This document shows, piece after piece, positions 1,889 to 26,408 of a DNA stretch of 64,000 bases. The stretch spans positions 1 to 64,000 of the forward strand of contig JAJDVT010000104.1 of the NCBI GenBank assembly GCA_022826005.1. Reading direction: 5' to 3'. Under the pieces are notes generated by a model, which saw only the letters and a program-made list of their open reading frames with translations, was not told the DNA's origin and did not search any database. The stretch is from Gemmatimonadota bacterium. Its GTDB lineage: Bacteria; Gemmatimonadota; Gemmatimonadetes; Longimicrobiales; Gaopeijiaceae. Position numbers and translations under genes: made by a program. Positions within the stretch are counted from its first letter, which is position 1, and every line of letters starts with the position of its first letter.

Positions 1889-1903
1889 CCCGGCACCGCC
1901 GGG
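1889..1903 (+). terminator. Short GC hairpin directly after copy 1 stop
   Basis: CCCGGC-ACC-GCCGGG forms a perfect 6-bp stem with a 3-nt loop right after the TGA. No T-run follows, so it is at best a weak terminator or a pause/RNA-stability hairpin separating copy 1 from the transcription unit that starts at copy 2. Confidence 0.35.
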
Positions 1904-1913
1904 TATCACATGG

Positions 1914-1919
1914 TATAAT
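1914..1919 (+). promoter_or_regulatory. Consensus -10 box upstream of array copy 2
   Basis: A perfect TATAAT lies in an otherwise GC-rich gap 54 bp before the copy 2 start. No good -35 is seen at 16-18 bp. This gap also lacks the junction element found between all later copies, and copy 2 has a strong GGAGGA at 1964-1969, so transcription of copies 2-6 probably begins here. Confidence 0.4.
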
Positions 1920-1972
1920 GGGATGACCCGGAACTAATCGCCCCAGGGCACCAGAGGTATTTCGGAGGAACC

Positions 1973-4900
1973 ATGAGAGAGTTCGCTCTGGCGGGTCGTC
2001 GGCCAGTTGTTGCGGGCGTCCGCCCGGCCCCCCTCGTCGCCCTGGTTCTCCTGCTGTGCCAGGGCTGCGCCGGTGCCCCCACCGCCGACCCGGCGGACGC
2101 GCGCGCCACCACCCCAGCCCCCACCCTCACCCACCCCACCTGCGACCACTGGGGCTCGATCGACTTCTTCCGCGATGCCACCCCGCAGCTGGTGCGCGAG
2201 TGCCTCCAGGCGAGCGCAGACCCCAACGGCCCCCCGGGCGTGTACCCGCTGCCTCCCCTCTTCGTCGCTGCCGGGTGGTCGCCGCATCCGGCCGTCATCT
2301 CGGCACTGGTCGATGCCGGAGCGGACGTGGTCGCCCGCGAATGGGGCGACCTTACCCCTCTGCACGAGGCGGCGAGCCAGAACACGAACGCCGGGGTCAC
2401 GGCCGCCCTCCTGGAGGTGGGGGTGGCCCCGAACGCGCGGGATCGGGACGGCATTACCCCGCTCCACCTGGCGGCGAAGGACAACAGCAACCCGGATGTC
2501 GTCACCTTACTGATCGAGGCTGGCGCCGACCCCAACATCCGCGATCCATACGGCAACACGCCCCTTCACCTGGCCTGGGCCCACATCTTCGCCGATCGCC
2601 GCCCGGTCATGCGCGAACTCCTGCGTCTCGGCGCCGACCCACTCGCACGCAACGATGCGGGAGAGATCGCCGAACCGACCCACTGCGACAACTGGAACAC
2701 GGGCTACTTCGCCTATTCGGCGCTCCCTGCGGACTACGCGCGCTGCCTGGACGCGGGTGCGGACCCGAACGCGCGCGTCGGCGAGGGGCAGACGTTGCTC
2801 CACCGGGCTTTGGAGAACCGAAACCCGGAGGTCACCGCCCTGTTGCTGGACGCTGGCGCGGACCCCAATGCACCGGGGCTTGGGGGTCCCCCCCTCATGC
2901 AGCCGATCTGGCTTAACACTCGGCGCTACATGAATCCCGACCCCGAGATTACAAGTGAACTGGTCCGCCTGCTTCTGGCTGCGGGCGCGGACCCCAACGG
3001 TGATAGCTCCGGAAACACGCCGTTGTACAGCGCCGCCAGCCAGGGGGCTGCAGAACTGGTTGGCTTGTTGCTGGAGGCCGGTGCGAATCCGAACCCGCCG
3101 ACCCGGCGCTGGGAGACATCGCCGCTCGCCGCTGCCACCCGATCCGGCCACACCGAAGTCATCCGGCTCCTGGAAGCCGCCGGAGCCGAAGCCGACACCC
3201 GGACCGGGGACGAATCGATACGTGAGCGTCCAGCCCCGGCAGGGGAAACACTCCCCGACGACCCCGACTACCCCTGTGGTGACACGGAATTCCTTGAGTT
3301 CGCCCCGCCCGAGAGCCTGCACGCGTGCCTGGAAGCCGGCGCCCGGTTCGACGAACCCGTCTCCAGGCTTCACTTGACCCCACTCTCATTCCTGGCCAGA
3401 GAGGGTCGTGCAGCCGTTCCCGAGAAGATCGCCGTCCTCCTGGCTGCGGGCGCGGATCCCAACACGGTCGATGACCAGGGGCGGACGACGCTGCATCTGC
3501 TCGTCGGGCGGGGGTCGGAGGACGACGCCATCGGGCGGATCGCCGTCCCGGCTTTGATTGACGCGGGTGCCGACGTGAACGCGCGCGACGACCAGGGCCG
3601 AACCCCCTTGCACGACGCGGTGGAGGCGGCCGTTCGGGGTGGGAGGACACCCGCACAGGACGCCAGCCATGTGATCCAGCTGCTGCTGCGGGCCGGCGCG
3701 GATGCGAATGCGCGCACGCATCTCGGCGAGAGTCCAATGCACATGGCAGCTCCGGCTTCGTGGCGCCCCGGAACGTGGGTGAGCCCTCGCGACGCGAAGG
3801 TGGTTGACCCCGTAATCTCCGCCCTGCTGTAGGCTGGCGCGGAGATCAGTGCCAGGACCAACAACGGGCGGACGCCCCTGCATGTGGTCGTCCAGGGAAA
3901 CCAGCCCGCTGCCGTACTTGCGCTCCTCGAAGCAGGCGCGGATCCGGCGCTTCGCGACGACGCCGGGAACCTTGCCGATCCGACCATCTGCGAGCACTGG
4001 GGCAAGGCGGTGTTCTTCGCGACTGCCGACGCAGATGACATCGCCCGTTGCCTGGAGGCCGGGGCGGACCCGATTGCACCCGTGGAAGCTTACCCCCAGC
4101 ACAGGGCTTCGCTTCTCCATTTCGTTTCCGTCCACGCCCGCGATCCAGCAGTGATCACCGCCCTCGTGGAAGCGGGCGCCGACGTGAACGCACGCGACGT
4201 TTGGGGATACACGCCCCTGCATTCTGCCGCTGAGAATGCCATGCCCGCCGCCGTGCAGGCACTGGTCCAGGCCGGCGCCGACGTCAACGCGCCGTTGAGA
4301 TCGTTCGGCCGCGGTCTGGACTCCCGGGGAGGACGGACCCCGCTGCACATTGCAGCGTCCAATCCCAACCCGGAGGTCGCCGCCGCGCTGATCGAAGCCG
4401 GCGCAGATGTCACCGCGCGGTCTGGGATTTGGACCGGCACCCCCCTGCACCTCGCTGCACGGAACCCGAATCCGGCGGTGGCGGCGCTGTTGCTGGACGC
4501 CGGTGCCAACGTGAACGCACGGGAGTTCGCAAGGACCTATTTGCCGTACGGGCTGACCGTGAGCAGCGTGGACGAGACCACCCGCCGGCTGGGTGGAATC
4601 ACCCCGCTGCATTGGGCGGCGTGGCTGAATCCGAACCCGGAGGTCCTCGCCCTGCTCCTGGACGCCGGAGCGGATCCCGCAGCCCTGGCATGGAGGACCG
4701 AGGACCACCACTATGCGGAACGGCGGAGCGACAACCCACACTACCAATGGTCGGGGAATGTCACTCCCCTCTACGACGCAGCCCGGTTCAGCGCCGATCC
4801 AGCAGCCGTGGAGACTCTCGTCGCAGCGGGCGCCAACGTGAATGGTCGCGGAGCGCAGTTGACCTTTCATCCCCGGCAGCAGACCACCTCTCCCGACCCG

Positions 4901-5188
4901 CACCTGTCGCCTCTCTATCTGGCGGTTCGGGGGGACGGACATCCCGCCACAATCGAGGCCCTGGTGCGCGCGGGTGCCGACCTGGAGCTGACCGATTCGG
5001 ATGGGCGGACCGTGCTCCACGTGGCAGCGATCGGCTACCCCGCCGTCTTCCCCCTTCTCCTGCGCCTGGGTGCCGACCCGGATGTCCTGGACGCCGAAGG
5101 CGAGACACCCATGGACTACGCGAGGGAGAATTACATGCTCCAGCCCTGGGAGCGAGTCAGAATGTCAACTCCGCTTGGCAGAAGGTAA
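1973..5188 (+). pseudogene. Exported ankyrin-repeat protein interrupted by an in-frame amber codon (array copy 2)
   Basis: One continuous frame of 1071 sense codons is broken only by TAG at 3830-3832, inside an ankyrin repeat reading ISALL-stop-AGAEISAR, where paralogues have LLEAGAE; a single G-to-T change (GAG to TAG) explains it. The start ATG at 1973 follows GGAGGA. The N-terminus is a signal sequence with a possible lipobox (LLCQGC, then AGAPTADPA, also seen in copy 3). Four cysteine modules are present: CDHWG, CDNWN and PCGDTEF before the stop and CEHWG after it. The tail is class A (LQPWERVRMSTPLGRR). The 619-aa upstream product would still be exported; the downstream part could restart at the GTG at 3884 but would have no signal peptide. 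A base-calling error is possible. Both halves look free of other damage, so the lesion is recent or false. Confidence 0.85.
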
Positions 5189-5200
5189 AGAGAAGATGAC
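5156..5200 (+). repeat. Array junction element, copy 1
   Basis: A 45-bp element with core AATGTCAACTCCGCTTGG, running from the last codons of copy 2 through its TAA into the start of copy 3. It supplies the upstream C-terminus (RMSTPLGRR), a GAAGG ribosome-binding site and the next ATG, with 7 nt between stop and start, so it couples translation of neighbouring copies. Confidence 0.9.
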
Positions 5201-8200
5201 ACTACCTCAGCAGACACAGACGTATCGGATCCGGTCGCTCGCCATCGCGACCACGCTGCTGGCCTCGCCCCTCGTCGCGGCTTGTGCGGGCGCGCCCACA
5301 GCCGATCCGGCGGGTAGGCGCGGCAACGCGTCACTCCTGCCCGCCCAACCCCTCTGTGACGACTGGGGCACCGACACCTTCTTCGAATCAGCGTCACCGC
5401 AGGATGTCCAGGTCTGCCTCGAAGCGGGCGCGGATCCGGACGGCCCCCGCGACATGTACTGGGGGCCTCCATTTCATACCGCGGCGCGCGTCACCCAACA
5501 CCCGGAGGTCATCGCATTGCTGGTCGGTGCCGGGGCGGATGTCGATGTCCGCAACTGGAGGGGGATGACTCCACTGCATTCGGCTGCGGAAGGCAATTCC
5601 CACGCCGGAGTCCTGGCCGCGCTGCTCGAAGCCGGCGCCGACCCCAACGCTCGGGACCGCGACGGGATCACGCCGCTGCACATGGCCGCCACCAACTCCG
5701 ACAATGAGCAGATCGTCACTGCCCTGGTGCAGGCCGGCGCCGATATCAACGCGCGCGGGCCACTCGGCTTGACGCCCCTGCACATGGCCTGGTCCGACCT
5801 GAGGCCCGATAACCGCGCTGCGGCAATCCGGGAGCTGTTGCGCCTGGGAGCGGACCGCCTCGCCCTCAACGATGGCGGCCAGATCGCCGACCCCACCCAC
5901 TGCAACTACTGGGACACCGACACCTTCGCCCATGCCGCCGTCCCTGCGGACTTCACGCGCTGCCTGGAGCAGGGCGCGGATGTGAACGCCCGCGGCGATC
6001 GGGACAATACCGTTCTCCATCGCGCGACGGGCAACGAGGATGCGTCCGTCATCGGGGTACTGCTGGACGCGGGTGCCGAGCTGGAAACGCGCAACTCCAA
6101 TGGACTGACGCCGCTGCAATCGGCCATCAGCAACAGCAACCCGGCCGCTGTAGCCGCCCTGCTGCAGGCCGGGGCGGACATCAACGCGGATGCCGGCAGC
6201 TTCTACGGCACGCCCCTGACCCACGCGGCTTTCCAGATCAGGGGATACACCAGCCCGCGCAACGCAGCCACGATCGCCATCATCGACCAGTTGCTGGAAG
6301 CCGGCGCGGACGTGAACGCCGTAGACGAGCGGGGCGACACGCCCTTTCTGAAGGTCCTCCGCAGTGGCGGCACCGGCACTATGGCCGACTCCACGGCGGC
6401 CCTGGCTTTGAAGCTGCTCGAGGCTGGCACGGATCCGGATGCCCCGGGCGCCCGGCTGACGACGCCGCTGCATGCGGCGGCAGGATCCGGCGCTCCGTTG
6501 CTGGTCGACGCCCTGCTGGACGCCGGGGCTGATCCCGACGCCCGAAATGAAGACGGCAACTCCCCCCTGCACCGTGCCGCGCGGACCGGCAGTCCCGAGA
6601 TGGTTGCGCAGCTGGTCGACGCCGGGGCGGACGTGAACGGACGCAACACGGACGGCCAGTCCCCTCTTCACCTGGCGGTTCTGGGGGGTGAGCGTCTCTT
6701 CAACGCGGCCATGGAGGCCCAACTGCTCGAGTACTTCGAACTGACGCTCCCGCAGGAAGAGACACCACCGTGGCAGCTCCGGGCGGCGGCACTCCTGGAA
6801 CTCGGCGCCGACCCGAACTCGCAGGACGCGGAAGGCAACACGCCCCTGCACCTGGCAACGGGAGCATTGGACACGGTCCTGGCGTCCCTGCTGGTCGACG
6901 CCGGAGCCGACGTCAACGCCCGCAACGAGAGTGACGAGACGCCGCTAATGGTGGCCCGCAACCACGCCAACGAACCCGTCGTCCGCAAGCTGCTCGATCT
7001 GGGTGCCGACCCCGGTGTCCTGGCGGCGACCGGGGGGACTGAGGGCCTTCTCTGCGACCTGACCGACCGCATGTTGGTGCAGCGCGCTCCGGTTGAAAGC
7101 CTGACTGCCTGCCTGGTGGCCGGCTTTTCCTCCGACCTTCCCGATTGGGGTGGCCAGACGCCCCTTTTGACGCTCGTGGGTTCCGGCCCCGATCCCACCA
7201 TCCTCGACAAGATCGAACTCTTGCTGGCCGCGGGGGCGGACGCCAACGCGCGCACTCGTTCAGGCCACACTGCGCTGCATCACGCCGCCGGTGGAAGAGG
7301 GGAATCGTACAGCCCGGGGTGGGACGGGCCGGCGGGCCTCGCCGCCGCGACCGCGTTACTGGAGGCCGGGGCGGACGTGAACGCCCGGGATTCCCGGGGG
7401 GAGACGCCGCTGCACGGTGCGGCGCGCTGGCAGAGCCGCGACACGATCTCCATGGAGTCCCTGCTGCTGGCGGCCGGTGCGGATGTGAATGCGCGAGCGA
7501 ATGATGGCGCGACTCCGCTGCACCTGGCGGCTGCGCTTGACCACGTGCCGGCCGTATCCGTCCTCCTTGAGGCCGGCGCGGAGATCGATGCCCGGACCAG
7601 CACCGGTCTCACCCCTTTGCGTCTGGCCATGCAGAATACCCGGCGCGCCGCGGTCGCCAGGTTGCTGGAAGCCGGAGCCGATCCCGACGCGCGGGACCTG
7701 GAGGGGAGACCCTACGATCCGATCAGCTGCGAGCGATGGGGCACCCCGCCCTTCTTCGCATTCGCAACCGTTGATATCGTGACCGCCTGCCTGGACTCCG
7801 GGGCGGACCCTCGGGTAGTGCGCCAGCCGCGCCCATCGGCGTCCACCGGTGGAAGGCTGGTCGCGCCCGTCCGTACCGGTACTCCGCTGCATGTAGCCGC
7901 CGCCCACGCGCGGGATCCCGCGGTGATCACCACCCTGGTGAGGGCCGGGGCCGATGTGAACGCCCGCGACAACTCGGATTCTACGCCCCTCCACGCGGCT
8001 GTGGAGACCGGGACTGCCGGCGTGGTGCGCGCGCTGCTGGAGGCCGGTGCCGAGGTTGATGCACGGCCCCGCCGATACGTCTGGTTTTTCGGACCTGGGC
8101 AGACCCCGCTCCACAACGCCGCGTCCAATCCGGACCCGGAGGTCGCCGCGGCGCTTCTGGATGCGGGTGCCGATGTCGGCAGCCAGGGCCCAGGCGGAGT

Positions 8201-8849
8201 TTCTCCCCTGCACAGCGCCGCAACACGCGGGAATGCAGCGGTGGCCGCCCTTCTGCTGGACGCGGGTTCCGACGTCAACGCCCGTTCATCCACCGGCCTG
8301 ACGCCACTCCACCACGCCGCCGGGTCACGAAGCTCCGACCTGATCGAAATGCTGCTGGAGGCGGGAGCCGACGTGCATGCGCGCGGATGGTACGGCGTTT
8401 CCCACAGTGTGCAGGGAAACGTGACGCCCCTGCACGTGGCGGCCTACAGGAACCCGAACCCGGAGATCGTGACGATGCTCGTCGCCGCGGGGGCGGACCC
8501 GAACGGCGAGGTGCCGCGCGCGGGTCGTTTTCCCAACCAGCGCACCACCTCCTTCCCGGGGAAACCCCATTCACCCCTCCATCTCGCGGCAGGCAGCAAC
8601 ACCCCTGCCGTGATCGAGGCGCTCCTTCGCGCCGGGGCCGACCTGGAGCTGACCGACTCGGACGGCCGAACCGTCCTGCACCATGCGGCGGTCGTCTTTC
8701 CCGCCGCCTTCCCACTCCTCCTGCGCCTGGGCGCCGACCCGCAGGTGCGTGACGCCGCAGGCAAGACACCCATGGACTACGCGAGAGAGAACCCCGCGCT
8801 ACACCCCTGGGAGCGGGTCAGAATGTCAACTCCGCTTGGCAGAAGGTAA
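5196..8849 (+). CDS. Giant ankyrin-repeat lipoprotein (array copy 3)
   Basis: 1217 aa from the ATG at 5196, chosen because it follows the junction-element ribosome site and gives a proper signal peptide; the frame is open further upstream but only as a shadow of copy 2. The signal ends in a good lipobox (LVAAC, then AGAPTADPAG), so the mature protein is predicted to be a lipid-anchored exported protein. About 32 ankyrin repeats follow in four blocks. Each block starts with a cysteine module: CDDWG, CNYWD, CDLTD and CERWG, with 19, 19, 18 and 19 residues before the partner Cys. Apart from the lipobox Cys these eight are the only cysteines I see, which supports pairing as disulfides. The tail is class A. 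Copies 2 and 3 share the post-lipobox sequence. Function is unknown; a binding or adhesion role at the cell surface is inference. Confidence 0.92.
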   Translation: MTLPQQTQTYRIRSLAIATTLLASPLVAACAGAPTADPAGRRGNASLLPAQPLCDDWGTDTFFESASPQDVQVCLEAGADPDGPRDMYWGPPFHTAARVTQHPEVIALLVGAGADVDVRNWRGMTPLHSAAEGNSHAGVLAALLEAGADPNARDRDGITPLHMAATNSDNEQIVTALVQAGADINARGPLGLTPLHMAWSDLRPDNRAAAIRELLRLGADRLALNDGGQIADPTHCNYWDTDTFAHAAVPADFTRCLEQGADVNARGDRDNTVLHRATGNEDASVIGVLLDAGAELETRNSNGLTPLQSAISNSNPAAVAALLQAGADINADAGSFYGTPLTHAAFQIRGYTSPRNAATIAIIDQLLEAGADVNAVDERGDTPFLKVLRSGGTGTMADSTAALALKLLEAGTDPDAPGARLTTPLHAAAGSGAPLLVDALLDAGADPDARNEDGNSPLHRAARTGSPEMVAQLVDAGADVNGRNTDGQSPLHLAVLGGERLFNAAMEAQLLEYFELTLPQEETPPWQLRAAALLELGADPNSQDAEGNTPLHLATGALDTVLASLLVDAGADVNARNESDETPLMVARNHANEPVVRKLLDLGADPGVLAATGGTEGLLCDLTDRMLVQRAPVESLTACLVAGFSSDLPDWGGQTPLLTLVGSGPDPTILDKIELLLAAGADANARTRSGHTALHHAAGGRGESYSPGWDGPAGLAAATALLEAGADVNARDSRGETPLHGAARWQSRDTISMESLLLAAGADVNARANDGATPLHLAAALDHVPAVSVLLEAGAEIDARTSTGLTPLRLAMQNTRRAAVARLLEAGADPDARDLEGRPYDPISCERWGTPPFFAFATVDIVTACLDSGADPRVVRQPRPSASTGGRLVAPVRTGTPLHVAAAHARDPAVITTLVRAGADVNARDNSDSTPLHAAVETGTAGVVRALLEAGAEVDARPRRYVWFFGPGQTPLHNAASNPDPEVAAALLDAGADVGSQGPGGVSPLHSAATRGNAAVAALLLDAGSDVNARSSTGLTPLHHAAGSRSSDLIEMLLEAGADVHARGWYGVSHSVQGNVTPLHVAAYRNPNPEIVTMLVAAGADPNGEVPRAGRFPNQRTTSFPGKPHSPLHLAAGSNTPAVIEALLRAGADLELTDSDGRTVLHHAAVVFPAAFPLLLRLGADPQVRDAAGKTPMDYARENPALHPWERVRMSTPLGRR

Positions 8850-8861
8850 GGAGAACATGAC
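8817..8861 (+). repeat. Array junction element, copy 2
   Basis: A 45-bp element joining copies 3 and 4. It differs from the other junctions by only a few bases near the start codon (AAGGAGAACATG instead of AAAGAGAAGATG). As elsewhere it holds the stop of the upstream gene and the ribosome site and ATG of the next. Confidence 0.9.
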
Positions 8862-11800
8862 AACCCGAAGACAGCCGAGCGCCGTCGCCATCGCATCCAC
8901 CCTCCTGGCCCCCCTCCTCTTCGCGACCCCGTCCACCGCCCAGCTCTTCCCCGACCCCCCTCCACCCCCCTGCGACGAATGGGGCACCGGATACTTCTTC
9001 CGGTCCGCCACCCCCGAGCGCGTGCGCGAATGCCTCGAAGCCGGCGCCGATCCCGTCGCCCCGAACCCGGACGGGGTCACGCCGCTGCACCTGGCGGCGC
9101 TGCAGAACCGCAACCCCGAAATCGTCACCATCCTGGTTGAAGCCGGCGCCGACCCCAACGCCCGGGGCCCCTCCGGCCTGACGCCTCTGCACATGAGCTG
9201 GAGCCAGTCGGGATCGACTCGTGCCGCGGCGGTGGCCCGCGAGCTGTTGCGGCTGGGGGCCGATCCCCTCGCGCGTGACGAGCGCGGCTGGGTCGCCGAC
9301 CCCACCCACTGCGACCACTGGAACACCGGGTCCTTCTCCCGCATCGCAGTCCGGGCGGACTTTGCCCGCTGCCTGGAGGAGGGCGCGGACGTGTTCGCTC
9401 GCGACGCCAACTTCCCATATGCGAACGACGGGGGCTACACCGTCCTCCATCACGCGACGGCGAACGGGGACGCTTCCATAATCGCGCTGCTCGTGGACGC
9501 CGGGGCCGACCTGGAAGCCCGCAACGACAGATGGGGCTTCACGCCACTCCACACCGCCATCGGCAACCGCAACGTCGCCGCCGTGACCGCCCTGCTGGAC
9601 GCCGGTGCAGACATCGAAGCGGATGCCGGCGGCATCTGGGGCACGCCCCTGAGCCGCGCGGCCATGCAGATCAGCGGGATCAGCAACAACCGCAATGCGG
9701 CCACGATGACGATCATCGACGCGCTGCTGGCCGCGGGCGCCGACGTGAACGCCGTTGGCGAGGATGGGCGCACGCCGCTTCTGAATGTTCTCCAGGACGG
9801 CCGCATAGGGCTCTACTCCACGAACGAGCGTCTGCGTGGCACCGAAGCCACCGCCGATTCCGTGGTCGATCTGGCCGTGAAGCTGCTGGAGGCCGGCGCG
9901 GATCCCGACGCGCCGGGAGGGTGGGGACAGACGCCGTTGCACGAGGCCGCGGAATACCGGACTCCGGCACTGGTCCAGGCCCTGCTGGATGCCGGGGCCG
10001 ACCCGAATGCCACGGACCGATACGGCAGCTCCGCCCTGCACGTGGCCGCCCGCGCCGGCAGTCCCGAGATCATAGCGCTATTGGTGGCTGCCGGTGCGGA
10101 AGTGAACGGGCGAACTGACGTTGGAACATCCCCGATTCACGTTGCGGTCTCGTCGGTTCCCTACTACCTGACCGGGGACAGCTCACAGGTGCGGACAGGC
10201 TCCTGGAGGCTCCGGGCAGCCGCTCTCCTGGAGGCGGGAGCGGATCCCAACCTCCCGGATGCGGAGGGTGACACGCCCCTGCACTTCGCCGCGCAGGAGG
10301 TCGACACGGCCCTGGTGTCCCTCCTGGCCACCGCCGGAGCCGACCTGAACGCCCGCAACGACAGGGGCGAGACGCCGCTCCTGACTGCACGCTACCACGC
10401 CAATGCGCCGGTCGCGCGCAAGCTTCTCGATCTTGGGGCCGACCCCAGTGTGCTGGAGGGCACCGGGGGGATCGACGGTCCACTCTGCGACCTCACCGAC
10501 TACTCCTTCCTGCTCCGCTCCCCGGCCGAGAGCCTGGGGGACTGTCTGGAAGCCGGCTTCCCCGTGGACAGGACTGACGCCGCTGGCCGGACGCCTCTAT
10601 GGCGCCTCGCGGGATTCACATCCTGGAGCTTTGACGACCCCGAAAAGGTGGCGCTCTTCCTCGCGGCCGGCGCGGATCCCAACGCGCGCACGAACTCGGG
10701 TTCGGGGCGCACGCCGCTACATCTGGTCGCCGAAGGGGACAGGGACTATTATGGTCACCGGAAATGGGTCGGCGAACCGGGCCGCGCCGCCGCCACCGCG
10801 CTGCTTGACGCAGGTGCGGATGTCAACGCCCGCGACACCCTGGGCCAGACGCCGCTGCATGAAGCCGTCGGTCAGGAGGACGACTCCGCGACGTTCCTGG
10901 TAACCCTGCTGATCGAGGCAGGCGCCGACGCGAACGCCCGTGCTGACGACGGTCAGACCCCGCTCCACCTCGCCGCTTCGCGTGACCTTGTGCCCGTCAT
11001 GTCCGCCCTGCTCGAAGCCGGCGCCGAAGTGGACGCCCGCACGAATGACGGCCTGACCCCGCTGCACCTTGCTCTACGGAGAGGCCAGAGCGCCGCCGCA
11101 ACGACCCTGTTGGAAGCCGGAGCCGATCCTGACGCGCGCGACGCGGAGGGAAACCTCGTCGATCCGACCGACTGCGAGCACTGGGGCGCCGAAGCCTTCT
11201 TCGTGTTCGCCACTGCCGACATCGTCGAGAACTGCCTCGATGCGGGTGCGGACCCGAATGCCCTGCCCGAGTGGGCGGATTCCCCGGATACCCGCCCATT
11301 TGCCATCTTTGAACCCCGAACGCCCCTGCACGCGGCCGCCGCACATGCGCTGGATCCCGCCGTCATCGCCGCCATGGTGCGGGCAGGGGCCGATGTGAAC
11401 GCCCGCGGCGACTGGGACAAGACGCCACTCCATGAAGGCGCCGAGAACGGCACGCCGGAGGTGGTGCGGGCGCTCCTGGAGGCTGGTGCCGACGTCAACG
11501 CGCGACCCAGGGAATTCGACCCTTCTTCAGGCGTCGCGAACACCCCGCTGCACTTCGCTGGCCGCAATCCCGACCCGGAGGTTGCCGCGGCGCTGCTCGA
11601 GGCGGGCGCGGACGTCAACGCCCGGGGACAGGACCGCACAACCCCGCTGCACTACGCCGCGAGCAACCGAAATCCGGCGGTGGCGGAGCTCCTGCTGGAA
11701 GCCGGCGCCGAAGTAAACGCCGGAGGGTCCGAGGGCATCACGCCGCTCCACAACGCAGCCGCGCGGAACTCGAACCCGGATGTGCTCGCCGTCCTGTTGG

Positions 11801-12300
11801 AGGCCGGTGCCGACGTGCATGCGCGGGGAGCGTACGGCTTTATCCACGCCCCGGCCGGACAGGTGACGCCCCTGCACACCGCCGCCTACTGGAACCCCAA
11901 CCCGGAGATCGTCACGATGCTCATCGGTGTCGGAGCCGACCCCGATGGCGGGGAAGTGACCGCGCGCCCCCCCGCAGGGCCGGACACCTTCATTCGGCTG
12001 GGCGACGCCCGGGCGCAGTCTCCCATCTTCCTCGCGGCGTCGATCAATCCGAACCCCGCCGTGCTCGAGGCACTCGTGCGCGCCGGAGCGGATCTCGAGC
12101 GAACCGACCCGTCGGGACAGACGGTGCTGCACGACGCGGCGAATCACATACCGCGCGCCTTCCCGCTCCTCCTCCGCCTGGGCGCCGACCCGGAAGCGCG
12201 CGACGCGGAGGGCAGGACGCCCATGGATTACGCGAGGGAGAATCCGGCGCTGCAGCCGTGGGAGCGCGTCAGAATGTCAACTCCGCTTGGCAGAAGGTAA
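8857..12300 (+). CDS. Giant secreted ankyrin-repeat protein (array copy 4)
   Basis: 1147 aa from ATG 8857, 7 nt after the copy 3 stop. A Sec signal ends at ATPSTAQ (signal peptidase I type, no lipobox), followed by a short Pro-rich linker. About 30 ankyrin repeats are split into four blocks led by cysteine modules CDEWG, CDHWN, CDLTD and CEHWG, with 19, 19, 18 and 19 intervening residues. These eight are the only cysteines I find in the protein. Each block ends with a degenerate repeat of the type LLRLGADPLARD...DPTxC that leads into the next module. The class A tail TPMDYAREN...WERVRM looks like a C-terminal capping helix. Unlike copies 2, 3 and 6 it should be released as a soluble periplasmic or extracellular protein. 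No enzymatic domain is seen. Confidence 0.92.
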   Translation: MTTRRQPSAVAIASTLLAPLLFATPSTAQLFPDPPPPPCDEWGTGYFFRSATPERVRECLEAGADPVAPNPDGVTPLHLAALQNRNPEIVTILVEAGADPNARGPSGLTPLHMSWSQSGSTRAAAVARELLRLGADPLARDERGWVADPTHCDHWNTGSFSRIAVRADFARCLEEGADVFARDANFPYANDGGYTVLHHATANGDASIIALLVDAGADLEARNDRWGFTPLHTAIGNRNVAAVTALLDAGADIEADAGGIWGTPLSRAAMQISGISNNRNAATMTIIDALLAAGADVNAVGEDGRTPLLNVLQDGRIGLYSTNERLRGTEATADSVVDLAVKLLEAGADPDAPGGWGQTPLHEAAEYRTPALVQALLDAGADPNATDRYGSSALHVAARAGSPEIIALLVAAGAEVNGRTDVGTSPIHVAVSSVPYYLTGDSSQVRTGSWRLRAAALLEAGADPNLPDAEGDTPLHFAAQEVDTALVSLLATAGADLNARNDRGETPLLTARYHANAPVARKLLDLGADPSVLEGTGGIDGPLCDLTDYSFLLRSPAESLGDCLEAGFPVDRTDAAGRTPLWRLAGFTSWSFDDPEKVALFLAAGADPNARTNSGSGRTPLHLVAEGDRDYYGHRKWVGEPGRAAATALLDAGADVNARDTLGQTPLHEAVGQEDDSATFLVTLLIEAGADANARADDGQTPLHLAASRDLVPVMSALLEAGAEVDARTNDGLTPLHLALRRGQSAAATTLLEAGADPDARDAEGNLVDPTDCEHWGAEAFFVFATADIVENCLDAGADPNALPEWADSPDTRPFAIFEPRTPLHAAAAHALDPAVIAAMVRAGADVNARGDWDKTPLHEGAENGTPEVVRALLEAGADVNARPREFDPSSGVANTPLHFAGRNPDPEVAAALLEAGADVNARGQDRTTPLHYAASNRNPAVAELLLEAGAEVNAGGSEGITPLHNAAARNSNPDVLAVLLEAGADVHARGAYGFIHAPAGQVTPLHTAAYWNPNPEIVTMLIGVGADPDGGEVTARPPAGPDTFIRLGDARAQSPIFLAASINPNPAVLEALVRAGADLERTDPSGQTVLHDAANHIPRAFPLLLRLGADPEARDAEGRTPMDYARENPALQPWERVRMSTPLGRR

Positions 12301-12312
12301 AGAGAAGATGAC
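12268..12312 (+). repeat. Array junction element, copy 3
   Basis: A 45-bp element joining copies 4 and 5, identical in its core to the element at 5156-5200. It contains the copy 4 TAA and the copy 5 ATG. Confidence 0.9.
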
Positions 12313-15300
12313 CAATAGAGAGCCTCTGAAGCCGTTCGCCGTCGCAACCACGCTGCTGCCCCTTTTGCTCCTCCCCACCCCGGCGGCCGCCCAGGACCCC
12401 CCCGCCCCCACACCACCGCAGCTCACCTGCGCCGACTGGGGCAACTACCGCTTCTTCGAAATGGCCCCGCCCGACACGATTACGGCGTGCCTGGCGGCGG
12501 GGGCGGACCCGGGAATCCCCGTGGACAGCTATCGCGGGACGCCCCTCCACCACGCGGCGCGCGCCGCTCCGGACCCGATCCTCATCAACGTTCTGATCGC
12601 GGGCGGGGCGAACGTCAACGCCCGGGACCTGAGGGGCCGCACCCCCCTGCACGAGGCCGCACGCGCGAACCTCAATCCCGGTGTCATCGCGGCTCTCCTG
12701 GGTGGTGGCGCCGACGTGAATGCGCCCGACCAGCGCGGCACCACCCCTCTCCATGATGCCGCCCGCGTGAACCTCAATCCCCGCGCAACCCCGAACCCCG
12801 ACGTAATCCGGGCACTCCTGGAGGCGGGCGCCGACGTTGCCGCCCGTGACGATCGCGACAGGACGCCCCTGCACGCCACCTGGTTGAATCCCCCCGCCGA
12901 ATACGCCTGGCGCGATCCATGGATCAACACCGAGGCGGTCAGTCAACTACTCGCCGCAGGCGCCGATCCGCTCGCGCTCAATCAAAGGGGCGAGGCCGCG
13001 GGTCCGGGCGTCTGCCACAACTGGTACCTGGCCGTGTTCGCCCGGGTCGCCTCCCCAGCCGACTACGCCGGGTGCGCGGAAGCACGCACCGATCCGGACG
13101 CACGCGACGAGAACGGCTACACCGTCCTGCACCACGCGACAGTCATCGAGGATACTTCCGTTGTCGCTCTGCTACTTGATGCAGGAGCGGACCCGAGTGC
13201 GCGGAGCTACGACGACCACACGGCGCTACACTTCGCGTTGCGCCACCGCAACAGCGCCGTCGCGGCCATCCTTGTGCGGGCAGGCGCCGATGTGAACGCC
13301 GCCGAGAACGACGAGATCACCCCCCTTCACCTGGCGGTCTACGACTCGGCCGTGACGACCCTCCTCCTGGAAGCAGGCGCCGACGTCCACGCGGAAGCCG
13401 ACGGCACCGCGCTCCATCGCGCCGAGACGGCCGGCGTCGTCGACGCTCTGTTGGCCGCAGGCGCGGATATCAATGCCGTCGGGCAATTTGGGACCCCTCT
13501 CATGACCTCGATCCGGTCCAACATTTCATTCGGGCCGAACCGACGGGACTCTCTCTCCCAGGTCGCTGTTCGGCTCCTGGAACGGGGCGCGGACCTCAAT
13601 GCACGCAGCAGGATTGGCCTGACCGCGCTGCACGAAGCCGCATTCGCGGGACCGGAGTCGATCCGCGCACTTCTGGATGCGGGCGCGGATCCGTCGGTTG
13701 GAGACATGGACGGCGAGACGCTGCTCCATCGTGTGGCCGGATACTCCTCCGTGGGCCCGACCGTGATTCCGCTACTGCTGGACGCGGGGATGGACGTCAA
13801 CCTTCCCTCCAACAACGGGGAGACGCCGCTGCATCTGGCGGCGGGAGCGGTGAGGAACCTCGCCACAGTGACCATGCTCCTGGAGGCTGGCGCCGATCCC
13901 GGACGGCGCACGGACGCAGGCGATACCCCGCTCCATTCCGCAGTGGCGGGCCTGCGCCCGGACACCGGCACGGTTGCCGCGCTCGTGGCCGCCGGGGCGG
14001 ACATCGATGCGCGCAACGAGAGGGGCAGGACACCGGCGCAGATTGCGTGGACAGCTGGCCACTCCCAGGTGGTCGACCAGCTCATGGCGCTGGGCGCGTC
14101 CAGCGTCGCGCAGGACGAAGGAGGGGATGCGGCCGACCTGGGCTGCGACTGGAGTGACCTCAATTCACTTCGGAACCTTCCGGTCGAGAGTGCCCGGGGC
14201 TGCGTGGAAGCGGGCACGCCGCTGGATGCCCACGCCGACTATGGCGACACTCCGCTCATGGACCTGGCCGGGAGCAACAGGCACGGCGCACGAACCCTGG
14301 GAATCCTCGCAGTGTTTCTCGAGGCCGGCGTGGACGTCAACCAGCGAGACGACTCCGGACGAAGAACTCCACTTCACGATGTCGCCATCTCTCTTGGCGG
14401 CGTCGGTGCGGGCACGGCTGCCTTCGCCAGGGCGCTGCTGGACGCCGGCGCCGATGTCAACGCCAGCGACGACACGGGCTGGACGCCTCTCCACTCCGCG
14501 GTCAGCTCGCGCAGGGCGGGGCTTGGAGACAGTCTGGTTGCCGTGCTGGTGGATGCCGGGGCGGACGTCGACGCGCGCACGGAGACCGGCGTGACCCCCT
14601 TGCACCTGGCGCTGAACTACCCGGATGTCGTGACCGCGCTGATCGAGGCGGGGGCGGATCCGGCCGCGGTGGACGACTCGGGACACATCGCGGACCCGGT
14701 CAGCTGCCAAAACTTCGTTACTCACAGTTTCTTCGCGCTGGCAACGCCCGAACTGGTAACACGCTGCGCCGACGAGGGAGCCAGCCTGAATGCCGCGATG
14801 TTCCGTCAATCGCCGGTTTTTTTCGATCTGTTTGGCGACCGCCCACTCCACACCGCCGCCGAGTCGGCTTCGGATCCTGCCACCATCACGGCGCTTCTCG
14901 ACGCAGGCGCGGCGCTGCACGCGCGTGACGGACGTGACCACACTCCTCTTCACCACGCCGCACAGCACGGCACACCGGCAAACGTGCGCGCCCTGCTTGA
15001 AGCCGGCGCCCAGGTGGACATGCGCGCTAGCGGGTTCAACGTCGACTGGGGATGGGACTGGACCCCGCTCCACCTGGCGGCTCAAAACCCGGACGCGGAT
15101 GTCGGCCGGGTGCTCCTGGAGGCAGGTGCGGACGTCAGCGCGCGGGCCTACTACGGCCAGACGCCCCTGCACCTGGCGGCCGGCAACGAAAACGCCGAAG
15201 TCGCCGCCCTTCTGCTGGAAGCCGGCGGGGACGTGAACGCACGTGAGTGGATGGGGAGGACGCCCCTTCACGTGGCGGCCGCCGGAAACGAGAATCCCGC

Positions 15301-15865
15301 CGTGATCGAACTCCTGATCGAAGCCGGGGCGGACCTCCAGGCGGTGGGGAACCACGCCGAGGAGTACAGGCGAATCTACTCGCCGCTTGACGGCGCCACG
15401 CCGTTGCATGAAGCCGCGGCGTCCAACAGCAACCCTGCGGTGGTGACCGCGCTTGTCCGGGCCGGCGCGGAGATGGACACGGGGCGGCCACCGGACGTAG
15501 CCCCGGTGCCGATCGAACACGCCGGCACGATTCTGACAGAGATGGCGATTCGCAACATCGCGGACCCGGGGCAGTCCTCGCCCCTGCATCTTGCGGCGCT
15601 CCGCAACCCGAATCCCGCGATAATCGAGGCGCTGGTAGCCCTGGGGGCGGACATCGAGCTCCCGGGCAGAGATGGCAGTACGGCCCTCCACATGGCCGCG
15701 CGCAGCAATCCCTCCGCGTTCCTGGCGCTCCTGGCCCTCGGCGCCGACGACGCGGCCGTGAACGACGAGGGCCTCACACCGTGGGACTACGCAAAGGACA
15801 ACAAGGCACTGCACGGGCTGCCGGAGGTCCGGCGGCTGCGGAGGGAGGACCAGGAGGAAAGATGA
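12308..15865 (+). CDS. Giant secreted ankyrin-repeat protein (array copy 5)
   Basis: 1185 aa from ATG 12308. The signal peptide ends PTPAAAQ (signal peptidase I type) and is followed by a Pro-rich linker. Four cysteine modules lead the four ankyrin blocks: CADWG, CHNWY, CDWSD and CQNF, with 19, 19, 18 and 19 residues to the partner Cys; no other cysteines are seen. The Trp of the C-x-x-W motif is replaced by Phe in the fourth module. This copy has the class B tail (LHGLPEVRRLRREDQEER) although its neighbours 2-4 have class A, and a fossil of a class A tail survives just downstream at 15881-15940. Its stop overlaps the ATG of a mini-ORF (ATGA, 15862-15865). Function is unknown; the fold suggests protein binding outside the cytoplasm. 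Confidence 0.92.
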   Translation: MTNREPLKPFAVATTLLPLLLLPTPAAAQDPPAPTPPQLTCADWGNYRFFEMAPPDTITACLAAGADPGIPVDSYRGTPLHHAARAAPDPILINVLIAGGANVNARDLRGRTPLHEAARANLNPGVIAALLGGGADVNAPDQRGTTPLHDAARVNLNPRATPNPDVIRALLEAGADVAARDDRDRTPLHATWLNPPAEYAWRDPWINTEAVSQLLAAGADPLALNQRGEAAGPGVCHNWYLAVFARVASPADYAGCAEARTDPDARDENGYTVLHHATVIEDTSVVALLLDAGADPSARSYDDHTALHFALRHRNSAVAAILVRAGADVNAAENDEITPLHLAVYDSAVTTLLLEAGADVHAEADGTALHRAETAGVVDALLAAGADINAVGQFGTPLMTSIRSNISFGPNRRDSLSQVAVRLLERGADLNARSRIGLTALHEAAFAGPESIRALLDAGADPSVGDMDGETLLHRVAGYSSVGPTVIPLLLDAGMDVNLPSNNGETPLHLAAGAVRNLATVTMLLEAGADPGRRTDAGDTPLHSAVAGLRPDTGTVAALVAAGADIDARNERGRTPAQIAWTAGHSQVVDQLMALGASSVAQDEGGDAADLGCDWSDLNSLRNLPVESARGCVEAGTPLDAHADYGDTPLMDLAGSNRHGARTLGILAVFLEAGVDVNQRDDSGRRTPLHDVAISLGGVGAGTAAFARALLDAGADVNASDDTGWTPLHSAVSSRRAGLGDSLVAVLVDAGADVDARTETGVTPLHLALNYPDVVTALIEAGADPAAVDDSGHIADPVSCQNFVTHSFFALATPELVTRCADEGASLNAAMFRQSPVFFDLFGDRPLHTAAESASDPATITALLDAGAALHARDGRDHTPLHHAAQHGTPANVRALLEAGAQVDMRASGFNVDWGWDWTPLHLAAQNPDADVGRVLLEAGADVSARAYYGQTPLHLAAGNENAEVAALLLEAGGDVNAREWMGRTPLHVAAAGNENPAVIELLIEAGADLQAVGNHAEEYRRIYSPLDGATPLHEAAASNSNPAVVTALVRAGAEMDTGRPPDVAPVPIEHAGTILTEMAIRNIADPGQSSPLHLAALRNPNPAIIEALVALGADIELPGRDGSTALHMAARSNPSAFLALLALGADDAAVNDEGLTPWDYAKDNKALHGLPEVRRLRREDQEER

Positions 15866-15951
15866 AGCCGTTCGCCCGCCCATCCGGCGCTCCAGCCGTG
15901 GGACCTAGTCAGAATGTCAACTCCGCTTGGCAGAAGGTAAAGAGAAGATGA
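15862..15951 (+). other. Bridging mini-ORF between array copies 5 and 6, with fossil class A tail
   Basis: A 29-codon ORF starts with an ATG overlapping the copy 5 stop (ATGA 15862-15865) and ends with a TGA overlapping the copy 6 start (ATGA 15948-15951). Its peptide begins MKPFA and ends NVNSAWQKVKRR. In a different frame the same DNA (15881-15940) still reads HPALQPWDLVRMSTPLGRR and stop, the class A tail. The first bases match the copy 5 signal-peptide start (TGAAGCCGTTCGCC). I read it as a copy collapsed by internal deletion. It could now carry ribosomes across the gap; translation itself is unproven. Confidence 0.45.
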
Positions 15952-15952
15952 C
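15908..15952 (+). repeat. Array junction element, copy 4
   Basis: The 45-bp element is kept without change in its core although the copy 5 gene ended 43 bp upstream, so here it is not coding for the end of an ankyrin protein. Conservation therefore cannot be explained by the RMSTPLGRR peptide alone. Confidence 0.9.
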
Positions 15953-18900
15953 ACATGGCAGTTCGATGACTTCATCCGCCAGCGCTATCACGCCGCTGGT
16001 CGTCCTACTTGCCGCAGCCTGCGTCGGCGGCCCAGCGGCCGGTCCAGCAGCCACGTCCCCCTCCCCAACGAGCGCTCCCGACCCTGCCACGACCACCACC
16101 CCGCCAGATCCACCCCCTCCCCCGGCGTCTTCCACCGCTTCTGCGAGCACCCCACCCACCTGCGACGGCTGGAACGGCCGGGACTTCTTTGCAACTGCTT
16201 CGGCGGACCTCGTCCAGCAGTGTCTCCAGGCGGGGGCGCCCGCCCACGACCGCTCACAGCAGACTCCGGCCATATTCAGGGCGGCGGCCGCGGCTACCGA
16301 TGCCCGCGTCATCCAGCTTCTTGTGGACGCCGGCGCCGATCTCGATGCCGCGCTGGGCTACGGAATCAGGCGCACCGGGTACCGGCACGGCTACACACCC
16401 CTGCACACGGCTGCGGCGCTCAACCCGACCCCTGGCATCATCGACGCGCTCGTGTCGGCCGGGGCCGACCTTGACGCGCGGGACCGGGAGGGCTCGACCC
16501 CCCTTCACACGGCCTGGACGAACCCCAACCCCACCGTCGTCCGCGCCCTGCTCCGGTCCGGCGCCGACCCGCTCGCGCGCGACGAGCGCGGCCGGTCCGC
16601 GGACCCCACCGGCTGCATGAACTGGACCACCGCGACGTTCGCCCGGCTGGCCCTCCCCGACGACTTCCGTCGTTGCCTGGCACTAGGTGAAGACATCCAG
16701 GCCTACGACAGCGACGGCGACACCCCGCTCCACCTGGCCGCGGAGGTCGGGAACGCGGCCGCACTGAGGATCCTGCTGGAGGCCGGGGCGGATCTGACCG
16801 CCCGCAACAACGCGGGCGCCACGCCCCTGCATGTGGCCGCCACCAACGACGGCGCGGAGATCCTGACCATGTTGCTGGAGGCCGGGGCAGACATCAACGC
16901 CGGCGCAGGCAGCTTCGGCACCCCCCTGCTGTCCGCCATCGTAAACCGGAGAGGGTTCCGCAGGGAGCCGATGAGCGAGGCCGCGGTCAACGCCCTCCTG
17001 GAGGCAGGCGCCGACGTCAACGCCGCCGATTCCGCCGGCAATACTCCGCTGCCGGCAAGCATGGACCCCGACCGCCGTGAGGGCTCTCTTGTAGACCTTC
17101 CGTTGCGACTCCTCTCGCTCGGAGCGGATCCCAACCGGCGGGACGGCCAGGGCCGGACCCCGCTGCACGCGGCCGCCGCCGCCGAGGGACCGGAGGTGAT
17201 CCAGGCCTTGCTCGCAGCCGGCGCCGACCCGCAGGCGCGAACCGACGACGGTGCGTCCCCGCTTCATGCCGCAGCCGCGTCGGGAAAGCCCGAGGTCATC
17301 ACGCTGCTGGCCGGAATCGGCCTGGATCCGGACGTGCGGAGCGGGGACGCCATCGTGCCGCTGCACCTTGCAGTCGAGAGGAACAACACCAACCGGAGTC
17401 AATCGGTATGGGTGGGGATCGAAGGGGAGCGGCCTCCCTGGGTCCTGCGTACGCTCGCGCTGCTGGAGGCGGGCGCCGACCCCAACGCCCCAAACGCCGA
17501 AGGCGACACTCCCCTGCACCTGTCCGTGTGGCACGACGACTCTACCCTGGTTGCCGCTTTCGTTCAGGCCGGGGCGGATGTGCACGCCCGGAACGACCAG
17601 GGCGAGACCCCGCTTCACAAGGCCCGCGCGTGGGACAGCCGTCCCGCCGTGCGAGCCCTCCTGCGCCTCGGGGCCGACCCGGATGCCCGCGACAATGCCG
17701 GACTGGACGCCGATCCCATCTGCTGGGGCGCAGGGCCCGTCTACCGGTGGCAGTTTCTCGCCAGGTCGCCGGCCGAGAGCGTGCGCGGGTGTCTGGAGAC
17801 GGGGATTCCGGTCGATTCGCGCGATGCGGAGGGCGCGACGTTTCTCGCTCGGATGGTATCCGCGGCCGGCTGCTGCGCCGACTTCGAGAATGTCCTGGAC
17901 GCATTCGTCGAGGCTGGCGCGGACGTCAATGCGCGCGACAATGCGGGCAGGACCCCTCTTCATCGCGCCCTCGCGGCACCGGGCGACCGGTCGGCGCGGG
18001 CCAGCGTGATATCGGCACTGCTCGACGCGGGAGCCGACCCCAACGCGCGCGACACGCTGGATTCGACGCCGTTGCACACCGCTGCCGCGGAGTGGTCGGA
18101 AGCGAGCGCCCTGGTGTCCCTGCTGGCGGCGGCCGACGCTGACCTCAACGCCCGCAACAGTATTGGAGAGACGCCGCTCCACATCGCTCTGCGCGGTAAC
18201 CTGCTTGGTGACGACCCTGCCTTGGTGCGCACCCTACTGCGGCTCGGTGCCGATCCGATGGCCCGGGACAGTGCGGGGAATACGGCCGATCCGGTCGCCT
18301 GCGAACGCTGGGGCAACCAGAGCTTCTTCGCCCTCGCAGACGCCGCCATCGTGGCCGGCTGCATTGACGGTGGAGCAAGTGTCCAGGTCAGTCCCGACAG
18401 ATTCGGCCTTGTCCTGCCTCCGCTCCAAGCAGCCGGCGCGGCGAGCGACGCCGCGGTCATCTCCGTTCTCCTGGCCGCCCGCGCCGACGTGCGCCAGCGC
18501 GACGAGTTCTATGGATACACACCCCTCCACTTGGCCGCCGAAAGAGGTACGGCGGCGGTTGTACGGGCTCTGTTGCAAGCCGGCGCGAAGGCCGACGCGT
18601 GGGCGACGGGCTTCGCTACCGACTGGGGTTGGAGCTGGACTCCGTTGCACCTGGCCGCCAGATCGAATCCGGACCCCGATGTCGTGACGGCCCTGGTGGA
18701 GGCGGGCGCGGACCTCCATGCACCCGGCGGCGAAAGCCACCGCCGCGGCAATACCCCCCTCCACTACGCGGGCGAGAACCCGAATCCCGCCGTCGCCGCA
18801 GCCCTGCTCGAAGTCGGCGCCGACGTCAACGCCATTTCGCAGGGTGGCCGGACCCCCCTTCACGAGGCCGCCGCCAACGCTTCCAATCCCACTGTGATCG

Positions 18901-19415
18901 AGCTCCTGGTGGAGGCCGGCGCCGACGTGAACGCCCGCGATGCCGCCGGCTACACGCCCCTCCACTCGGCCGCCTGGCACAACCCTCGCCCGGAGATCGC
19001 GACCGCCCTGCTCGCCGCCGGAGCCGACGTGAACGCTCGGCACCCCGACGGTTACGTCCCCTCCGGTCTCCCGGCAGACGATCGCTCGCCGCTGTTCATG
19101 GCGGTATACCGCGGCGGAGTGCTCGTCGGCGGCCAACCCATGCCCACCGGGCGCAGTGTCTCGGTCGTCGAGGTGCTGCTGCGCGCCGGGGCGGACCTCG
19201 AACAGACAGACGGATCAGGCCTCACCCCGCTGCACGCAGCCGCACGCTGGACCCCCGCCGCCTACCCCCTGCTTCTCCGCCTGGGCGCCGACCCGAGCGC
19301 TCGCGACGCCGACGGCAAGACCCCGCTGGACTATGCAGTGGAAAACCGGTCGCTGGAAGGGCTGCCCGAGGTGCTGCGGCTGCGCGAGGCCATGCGGAGG
19401 GACGTGGGACGATGA
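15948..19415 (+). CDS. Giant ankyrin-repeat lipoprotein (array copy 6)
   Basis: 1155 aa from ATG 15948, inside the junction element. The signal ends in a probable lipobox (LLAAAC), followed by a roughly 50-residue low-complexity linker of Pro, Thr, Ser and Ala typical of surface lipoproteins. Four ankyrin blocks begin with modules CDGWN, CMNWT, ICWGAG and CERWG. The first, second and fourth have 19 residues between cysteines; the third has 22 and is followed by an extra CC pair (GCCADF), a feature shared only with copy 1. The class B tail (LEGLPEVLRLREAM) also matches copy 1. So copies 1 and 6 form one lineage flanking the class A copies. Its TGA overlaps the ATG of a second bridging mini-ORF (19412-19415). 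Confidence 0.92.
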   Translation: MTHGSSMTSSASAITPLVVLLAAACVGGPAAGPAATSPSPTSAPDPATTTTPPDPPPPPASSTASASTPPTCDGWNGRDFFATASADLVQQCLQAGAPAHDRSQQTPAIFRAAAAATDARVIQLLVDAGADLDAALGYGIRRTGYRHGYTPLHTAAALNPTPGIIDALVSAGADLDARDREGSTPLHTAWTNPNPTVVRALLRSGADPLARDERGRSADPTGCMNWTTATFARLALPDDFRRCLALGEDIQAYDSDGDTPLHLAAEVGNAAALRILLEAGADLTARNNAGATPLHVAATNDGAEILTMLLEAGADINAGAGSFGTPLLSAIVNRRGFRREPMSEAAVNALLEAGADVNAADSAGNTPLPASMDPDRREGSLVDLPLRLLSLGADPNRRDGQGRTPLHAAAAAEGPEVIQALLAAGADPQARTDDGASPLHAAAASGKPEVITLLAGIGLDPDVRSGDAIVPLHLAVERNNTNRSQSVWVGIEGERPPWVLRTLALLEAGADPNAPNAEGDTPLHLSVWHDDSTLVAAFVQAGADVHARNDQGETPLHKARAWDSRPAVRALLRLGADPDARDNAGLDADPICWGAGPVYRWQFLARSPAESVRGCLETGIPVDSRDAEGATFLARMVSAAGCCADFENVLDAFVEAGADVNARDNAGRTPLHRALAAPGDRSARASVISALLDAGADPNARDTLDSTPLHTAAAEWSEASALVSLLAAADADLNARNSIGETPLHIALRGNLLGDDPALVRTLLRLGADPMARDSAGNTADPVACERWGNQSFFALADAAIVAGCIDGGASVQVSPDRFGLVLPPLQAAGAASDAAVISVLLAARADVRQRDEFYGYTPLHLAAERGTAAVVRALLQAGAKADAWATGFATDWGWSWTPLHLAARSNPDPDVVTALVEAGADLHAPGGESHRRGNTPLHYAGENPNPAVAAALLEVGADVNAISQGGRTPLHEAAANASNPTVIELLVEAGADVNARDAAGYTPLHSAAWHNPRPEIATALLAAGADVNARHPDGYVPSGLPADDRSPLFMAVYRGGVLVGGQPMPTGRSVSVVEVLLRAGADLEQTDGSGLTPLHAAARWTPAAYPLLLRLGADPSARDADGKTPLDYAVENRSLEGLPEVLRLREAMRRDVGR

Positions 19416-19456
19416 CAAATGTCAACTCCGCTTGGCAGAAGGTAACGAGAAGATGA
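19412..19456 (+). other. Bridging mini-ORF after array copy 6
   Basis: A 14-codon ORF (MTNVNSAWQKVTRR) starts at an ATG overlapping the copy 6 stop and stops with a TGA overlapping the next ATG at 19453. Frame, peptide end and double ATGA overlap are the same as in the mini-ORF at 15862-15951, even though the gene that follows is now dead. Confidence 0.45.
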
Positions 19457-26224: not shown

Positions 26225-26297
26225 GCCCCCATCGTCTAGTGGACTAGGATACCTGGTTCTCAGCCAGGAGACCGGGGTTCGATTCCCCGTGGGGGTA
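26225..26297 (+). tRNA. tRNA-Glu (CTC)
   Basis: 73 nt that fold as a full cloverleaf. The acceptor GCCCCCA pairs with TGGGGGT (one G-U), the anticodon stem CCTGG/CCAGG encloses TTCTCAG with anticodon CTC, and the T arm is CGGGG-TTCGATT-CCCCG. CCA is not encoded. Confidence 0.95.
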
Positions 26298-26335
26298 CTT
26301 GGCAGGCTGGAGCGGCGGTTGCGCCCGCCTGTCAC

Positions 26336-26408
26336 GGTCGCTTAGCTCAGTCGGTAGAGCACTACGCTCACATCGTAGGGGTCGCTGGTTCGAGTCCAGC
26401 AGCGACCA
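26336..26408 (+). tRNA. tRNA-Val (CAC)
   Basis: 73 nt with acceptor GGTCGCT/AGCGACC, anticodon stem CTACG/CGTAG around CTCACAT (anticodon CAC), and T arm CTGG-TTCGAGT-CCAG. CCA is not encoded. It lies 38 bp after tRNA-Glu, probably in one transcript. Confidence 0.95.

What the first reader, a model, noticed from the sequence alone, without database searches (positions are those of the whole stretch)
5196..19415. Disulfide-stapled variant ankyrin repeat, four per protein at fixed spacing
Seen: every full copy has four modules of type C-x-x-W...F...C[LIAV]..G with 19, 19, 18 and 19 residues between cysteines (22 in module 3 of copy 6). In copies 3, 4 and 5 these eight are the only mature-protein cysteines found. 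The second Cys falls in the helix where normal repeats have LLLEAGAD. Inference: the Cys pair staples the N-terminal loop to helix 2, giving oxidised, stabilised block boundaries suited to life outside the cytoplasm. I know of no named ankyrin subtype like this.
Basis: partly seen in the sequence, partly recalled or inferred. Interest (0 to 1): 0.85.

Follow-up and report, generated by a model that had tools for sequence, protein, structure and literature searches.

The report
Cysteine-paired cap in exported ankyrin proteins
Large exported ankyrin-repeat proteins of a probable marine-sponge bacterium carry four (relatives: one to six) variant repeats that always hold two cysteines in the same places, most likely a disulfide staple that lets a normally intracellular protein scaffold survive outside the cell.

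Summary
Observation confirmed. Copies 3-6 (genes 5196-8849, 8857-12300, 12308-15865, 15948-19415) each carry four modules C-x-x-W...F...A...C[LIV]..G with 19/19/18/19 residues between the cysteines (22 in module 3 of copy 6). The module is much wider than the window. With both cysteines masked out of the profile, every real module still had both: 366 non-redundant modules, no single-cysteine case. Spacing varies from 14 to 25, yet the pair is never broken. The types A-D are positional (206/206), so the four-module layout predates the tandem duplications. Relatives carry 5-6 modules; single N-terminal modules right behind a signal peptide occur in Gammaproteobacteria, Entotheonella and a cyanobacterium. 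Nearly all proteins have an export signal, and the genome has a VKOR/DsbA-like pair. AlphaFold (pLDDT 92) makes the module an ankyrin helix pair with Cys2 in helix 2 and Cys1 just before helix 1; no coordinates were returned, so the Cys-Cys distance is unmeasured. No Pfam or PDB entry found covers the Cys1 half. Best reading: a disulfide-stapled ankyrin cap, an ankyrin analogue of Hcp/Sel1 solenoids; new variant of a known kind.

The parts
5196..8849 (+). copy 3: exported ankyrin protein (lipobox VAAC), four Cys-pair modules
5355..5417 (+). copy 3 module A, Cys codon to Cys codon, 19 residues between
5901..5963 (+). copy 3 module B, 19 between
7053..7112 (+). copy 3 module C, 18 between
7728..7790 (+). 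copy 3 module D, 19 between
8857..12300 (+). copy 4: exported ankyrin protein (AxA signal peptide), four modules; two segments modelled by AlphaFold2
8971..9033 (+). copy 4 module A, 19 between
9310..9372 (+). copy 4 module B, 19 between
10486..10545 (+). copy 4 module C, 18 between
11173..11235 (+). copy 4 module D, 19 between
12308..15865 (+). copy 5: exported ankyrin protein (AxA), four modules, eight mature cysteines only
12428..12490 (+). copy 5 module A, 19 between
13013..13075 (+). copy 5 module B, 19 between
14144..14203 (+). copy 5 module C, 18 between
14705..14767 (+). copy 5 module D, 19 between
15948..19415 (+). copy 6: exported ankyrin protein (lipobox AAAC), four modules plus a vicinal CC
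16161..16223 (+). copy 6 module A, 19 between
16614..16676 (+). copy 6 module B, 19 between
17721..17792 (+). copy 6 module C, 22 between
18300..18362 (+). copy 6 module D, 19 between
2..1888 (+). copy 1, cut by the contig start; modules C (197-277, 25 between) and D (764-826, 19 between)
1973..5188 (+). copy 2, same frame throughout but interrupted by TAG at 3830-3832; modules at 2141-2203, 2684-2746, 3275-3328, 3989-4051

Best explanation
The module is a variant ankyrin repeat of exported proteins, held together by an intramodule disulfide. The chain leaves the cytoplasm through a Sec or lipoprotein signal (motif shown by pattern); the cysteines are oxidised outside, probably by the VKOR/DsbA-like pair of the genome (inferred). 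The bond ties the short helical turn in front of helix 1 (Cys1) to helix 2 (Cys2), locking the first helix pair so that the exposed end of the repeat stack cannot fray (inferred). In single-module relatives it is the N-terminal cap directly behind the signal peptide (shown). In this Gemmatimonadota lineage the cap plus its block of repeats was multiplied inside the protein before the genes were duplicated in tandem (inferred from positional types), giving long extracytoplasmic ankyrin scaffolds with four fixed staples. Their likely task is binding partner proteins outside the cell, possibly of the sponge host (inferred).
For: Both Cys present in all 366 non-redundant modules found with Cys-masked profiles, spacing 14-25. 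All 8 Cys columns invariant or nearly so in 53 full copies of median 45% identity (3 of 53 rows misalign at Cys1 of module C; those rows were chosen on Cys pairs, so the masked test is the unbiased one). Of 55 copies with four modules, 53 have an even number of Cys from module A to the stop. Signal peptide or lipobox in 59 of 62 copies by pattern. dN/dS 0.24-0.43 between nearest copies of other genomes, dS 0.8-1.4 between window copies, so the conservation is not recent duplication. AlphaFold2 pLDDT 92: helix 1 starts 5-6 residues after Cys1 and Cys2 is the seventh residue of helix 2 in all four modules; in A, B and D Cys1 opens a short helical turn. VKOR with WCRYC next to a DsbA-like protein with CNHC. 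Types A-D separate perfectly by position.
Against: No Cys-Cys distance: the tool gives no coordinates. No biochemistry. No module that lost both cysteines together was found, which would have been the strongest sign of pairing. Localisation rests on a simple pattern, not on a dedicated predictor. The host role rests on published work with other ankyrin proteins.
Confidence: 0.76

Rival explanations
1. The cysteines form bonds between molecules or between modules, cross-linking the array proteins into a surface layer.
For: Up to six or seven co-encoded copies per array, some predicted lipoproteins; no distance measurement rules it out.
Against: The pair is kept in single-module proteins, at a local spacing tied to one helix pair; Cys2 is at a core position of helix 2.
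Confidence: 0.09
2. The pair is a redox switch or a metal site rather than a structural bond.
For: Two invariant Cys plus an often conserved Trp at Cys1+3 (263 of 366).
Against: No conserved His, Asp or further Cys near the pair; no CxxC; the conserved neighbours are F, A, L and G, fitting a core.
Confidence: 0.06
3. The cysteines are simply inherited and kept as small hydrophobic core residues without a bond.
For: Cys2 replaces a core Leu of the consensus repeat.
Against: 366 of 366 with both and none with one, across several phyla and with 14 to 25 residues between them; ordinary repeats of the same proteins carry hardly any Cys.
Confidence: 0.09

Closest known systems
Ankyrin repeat (PF00023, PF12796) and its N-terminal capping repeats, including DARPin N-caps
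   Same: Helix-turn-helix geometry, GAD end, place at the start of a stack; model residues 8-135 superpose on DARPins at 2-3.5 A
   Different: CxxW stretch and bulky FF in helix 1, invariant Cys pair, exported proteins; Pfam does not recognise the module alone
Helicobacter cysteine-rich proteins HcpB/HcpC and Csep1P (Sel1-like solenoids)
   Same: Exported bacterial helical solenoids whose helix pairs carry invariant cysteines in disulfides (PMC3851747, PMC12904459)
   Different: Sel1/TPR fold, a bond in every repeat; here ankyrin fold and the pair only in one variant repeat among many
Extracellular leucine-rich repeat caps (LRRNT/LRRCT), from general knowledge
   Same: Cysteine-stabilised caps found on the extracellular forms of a repeat family
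   Different: Other fold; there more cysteines per cap
Ankyrin proteins of sponge symbionts (Nguyen et al. 2014, cited in PMC8163846)
   Same: Same kind of host-associated bacteria and repeat; some alter amoebal phagocytosis
   Different: No cysteine module is described for them in the papers searched; they are usually discussed together with secretion-system effectors
Tankyrase ankyrin repeat clusters, from general knowledge
   Same: Several ankyrin blocks joined in one chain
   Different: Cytosolic, no disulfide staple

Membership tests
Ankyrin repeat protein (PF00023/PF12796) | Tandem 33-residue repeats matching the Pfam models over their cut-offs | tested here: met
   Ank_2 499.9 bits, 17 stretches in copy 3
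Ankyrin repeat protein (PF00023/PF12796) | The Cys module itself, given alone, matches an ankyrin Pfam model | tested here: not met
   No ankyrin family for four modules given alone; only an insignificant DUF6172 hit
Ankyrin repeat protein (PF00023/PF12796) | Ankyrin helix-turn-helix fold of the module | tested here: met
   Predicted helix pairs and superposition on DARPins
Helicobacter cysteine-rich / Sel1-like proteins | Sel1-like repeats in the protein | tested here: not met
   No Sel1 family among the Pfam matches of copy 3 up to E 1
Disulfide-bonded exported protein | Export signal | tested here: met
   Hydrophobic signal with AxA or lipobox in 59 of 62 copies, simple pattern
Disulfide-bonded exported protein | Cysteines occur in pairs | tested here: met
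   366 modules, no single; even Cys number in 53 of 55 four-module copies
Disulfide-bonded exported protein | S-S bond between Cys1 and Cys2 | not testable with these tools
   No model coordinates, no biochemistry
Secretion-system-injected ankyrin effector (Dot/Icm AnkX, AnkY and others) | NCBIfam equivalog score over the curated cut-off | tested here: not met
   Best AnkY 254.7 bits against a cut-off of 600, generic repeat matches

The most novel reading that the evidence does not exclude
A dedicated extracytoplasmic ankyrin cap, the ankyrin counterpart of LRRNT or Hcp staples, that has spread between unrelated phyla living in sponges and marks secreted ankyrin proteins which act on the host from outside rather than by injection.
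Probability: 0.4. Interest if true: 0.78.

Novelty: new variant of a known kind. Interest (0 to 1): 0.62.

Why it matters
Ankyrin proteins of symbionts are usually pictured as effectors inside host cells. A sequence-readable staple that occurs behind export signals separates an extracytoplasmic class from the rest, so that where sponge-symbiont ankyrin proteins act becomes testable. It also gives a natural solution for stabilising ankyrin scaffolds in oxidising surroundings, of use to designers of ankyrin binders.

Tried and rejected
Cys-Cys distance: AlphaFold jobs return no coordinates and none are laid in the Python box, so it was not measured. Single-Cys homologues: apparent 'xC' hits of the first masked search were mostly one-residue offsets of module C, not losses; the two odd high-scoring hits of the second were modules cut by locus ends. 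A kink at every module: weakened, because the C block superposes on one continuous DARPin stack through the first helix of module D (2.5 A over 219 residues) and the doubtful joints lie in the fingers behind modules B and D. Phage origin: no match in the phage records or viral contigs with the single-module form. Genome-contig and viral scans with two broader alignments (A3, A7) failed for lack of conserved stretches. PDB profile search: the best stretches of the 60 rows shown start at column 20 or later, so none shown covers Cys1; this does not exclude an unlisted structure. Literature: no paper found with ankyrin repeat, conserved cysteine, disulfide and bacterial symbiont together; absence in an open-access library is weak. 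Alignment A2 used in the genome searches held one accidental near-duplicate row; it was left out of the profile used for the counts.

Full report
WHERE IT IS. The window is the start of contig C14 of a 4.85 Mb assembly. The prefixes RHO and COS fit the sponges Rhopaloeides odorabile and Coscinoderma matthewsi named in PMC8163846; the sponge origin is therefore inferred, not read from a record. Six ankyrin genes stand head to tail at 2-19415; a second array of seven lies on C3:76-100 kb and further pieces on C121 and C41.

THE OBSERVATION. Listing every Cys of the ankyrin frames confirms four modules per full copy with the stated spacings. In copies 4 and 5 the eight are the only mature cysteines; copies 3 and 6 add a lipobox Cys, and copy 6 a CC pair. 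The same holds, with small changes of spacing, for the C3 array.

IS IT MORE THAN SHARED ANCESTRY OR CHANCE. A profile with both Cys replaced by X was run over ORFs of the fetched loci. The first run gave 211 hits of 40 bits or more, all with both Cys. A second run over all loci with an added masked profile for module C gave 515 hits of 20 bits or more with both; the remaining eight were six ordinary repeats with neither and two modules cut at locus ends. After removing identical modules 366 remain, with spacing 14 (1), 16-18 (58), 19 (274), 20-25 (33); Trp at Cys1+3 in 263, Phe at Cys2-12 in 339, Gly at Cys2+4 in 356. Copies in the window are 46-62% identical with dS 0.8-1.4, and dN/dS against the nearest copies elsewhere is 0.24-0.43, so this is selection and not recent copying.

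ARCHITECTURE AND HISTORY. Module identity is positional: 206 of 206 modules of four-module proteins are nearest to their own type. The four-module layout therefore existed before the genes were duplicated. In another family of the class single proteins of 1770-1884 aa carry five or six modules, and in another genus of the same family one of 1426 aa carries five, with an A-like first module and a C-like one (18 residues between) before the last. Smaller proteins in this genome (L013, L018) and in others have one module directly behind the signal peptide. The same single form stands in Gammaproteobacteria (L114, L115, L152), Candidatus Entotheonella (L116, L118) and a Prochlorococcaceae cyanobacterium (L117). 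It is rare in their relatives: 1 of 340 genomes of the cyanobacterial class, 4 of 369 of the gammaproteobacterial class (two of these, L153 and L154, show no module on inspection), 1 of 5 in the Entotheonella phylum; in the window's order 36 of 154 genomes, mostly its own genus and a sister genus. This patchiness fits lateral spread among host-associated bacteria, which is an inference.

STRUCTURE. AlphaFold2 on copy 4 with 53 aligned copies gave mean pLDDT 92.4 (modules A, B) and 91.5 (C, D). Each module is an ankyrin helix pair: helix 1 starts 5-6 residues after Cys1 (in A, B and D Cys1 opens a three-residue helical turn), and Cys2 is the seventh residue of helix 2, about level with the start of helix 1. 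That makes a bond feasible, but the tool returned no coordinates and the distance was not measured. Module A takes the place of a DARPin N-cap (residues 8-135 at 2-3.5 A). The stretch from module C through the first helix of module D follows one continuous DARPin stack (2.5 A over 219 residues). FF in helix 1 stands where the consensus repeat has small residues facing the previous repeat (from the alignment; inferred to favour an end-cap role).

EXPORT AND OXIDATION. 59 of 62 copies show a hydrophobic signal with AxA or a lipobox in front of module A by a simple pattern. The genome has a VKOR (WCRYC) next to a membrane-anchored DsbA-like protein (CNHC) at C76:47573-48528.

KNOWN RELATIVES. Four modules given alone hit no ankyrin Pfam family and one given alone no PHROG; PDB profile hits shown cover only the second half. 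NCBIfam Dot/Icm effector hits are generic, below cut-off. The closest functional analogues are the exported Hcp and Csep1P solenoids with conserved disulfides in their helix hairpins (PMC3851747, PMC12904459). Enrichment of ankyrin proteins in sponge Gemmatimonadota is published (0.25% of genes against 0.09% in seawater, PMC8163846); a cysteine subtype was not found in the papers searched.

VERDICT.

Noticed in passing
window 5163-5198, 8824-8859, 12275-12310, 15915-15950, 19420-19455; L017:1741; L052:12501: A near-identical stretch (AATGTCAACTCCGCTTGGCAGAAGGTAA followed by AGAGAAGATGAC) stands at the joint between successive array genes; it looks like the boundary of the duplicated unit, and occurs once more behind copy 6 in front of a very short frame, as if a seventh copy had been lost.
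   Followed up: partly
window 3830-3832: Copy 2 is open in one frame from 1919 to 5185 except for one in-frame TAG; short frames in sister genomes suggest that array copies decay now and then (or assembly errors).
   Followed up: partly
L012:2132-4033 and 7995-10037, L014:2098-4212, L019:1981-3927 (own genome): Another family of ankyrin ORFs ends in a shared tail NN-x-x-C-x-x-C (for example NNHRCVSC) and has no Cys-pair module; function of the tail unknown.
   Followed up: no
window copy 6, 17871-17876; also L011, L052, L054, L060, L061, L067: A vicinal Cys-Cys in the repeat just behind module C in one subset of copies, always both; possibly a vicinal disulfide.
   Followed up: no
G000:C76:47573-48528 (L161): VKOR and a membrane-anchored DsbA-like protein side by side, a likely oxidative folding pair.
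   Followed up: partly
window 26225-26408: Two tRNA genes in tandem downstream of the array.
   Followed up: no
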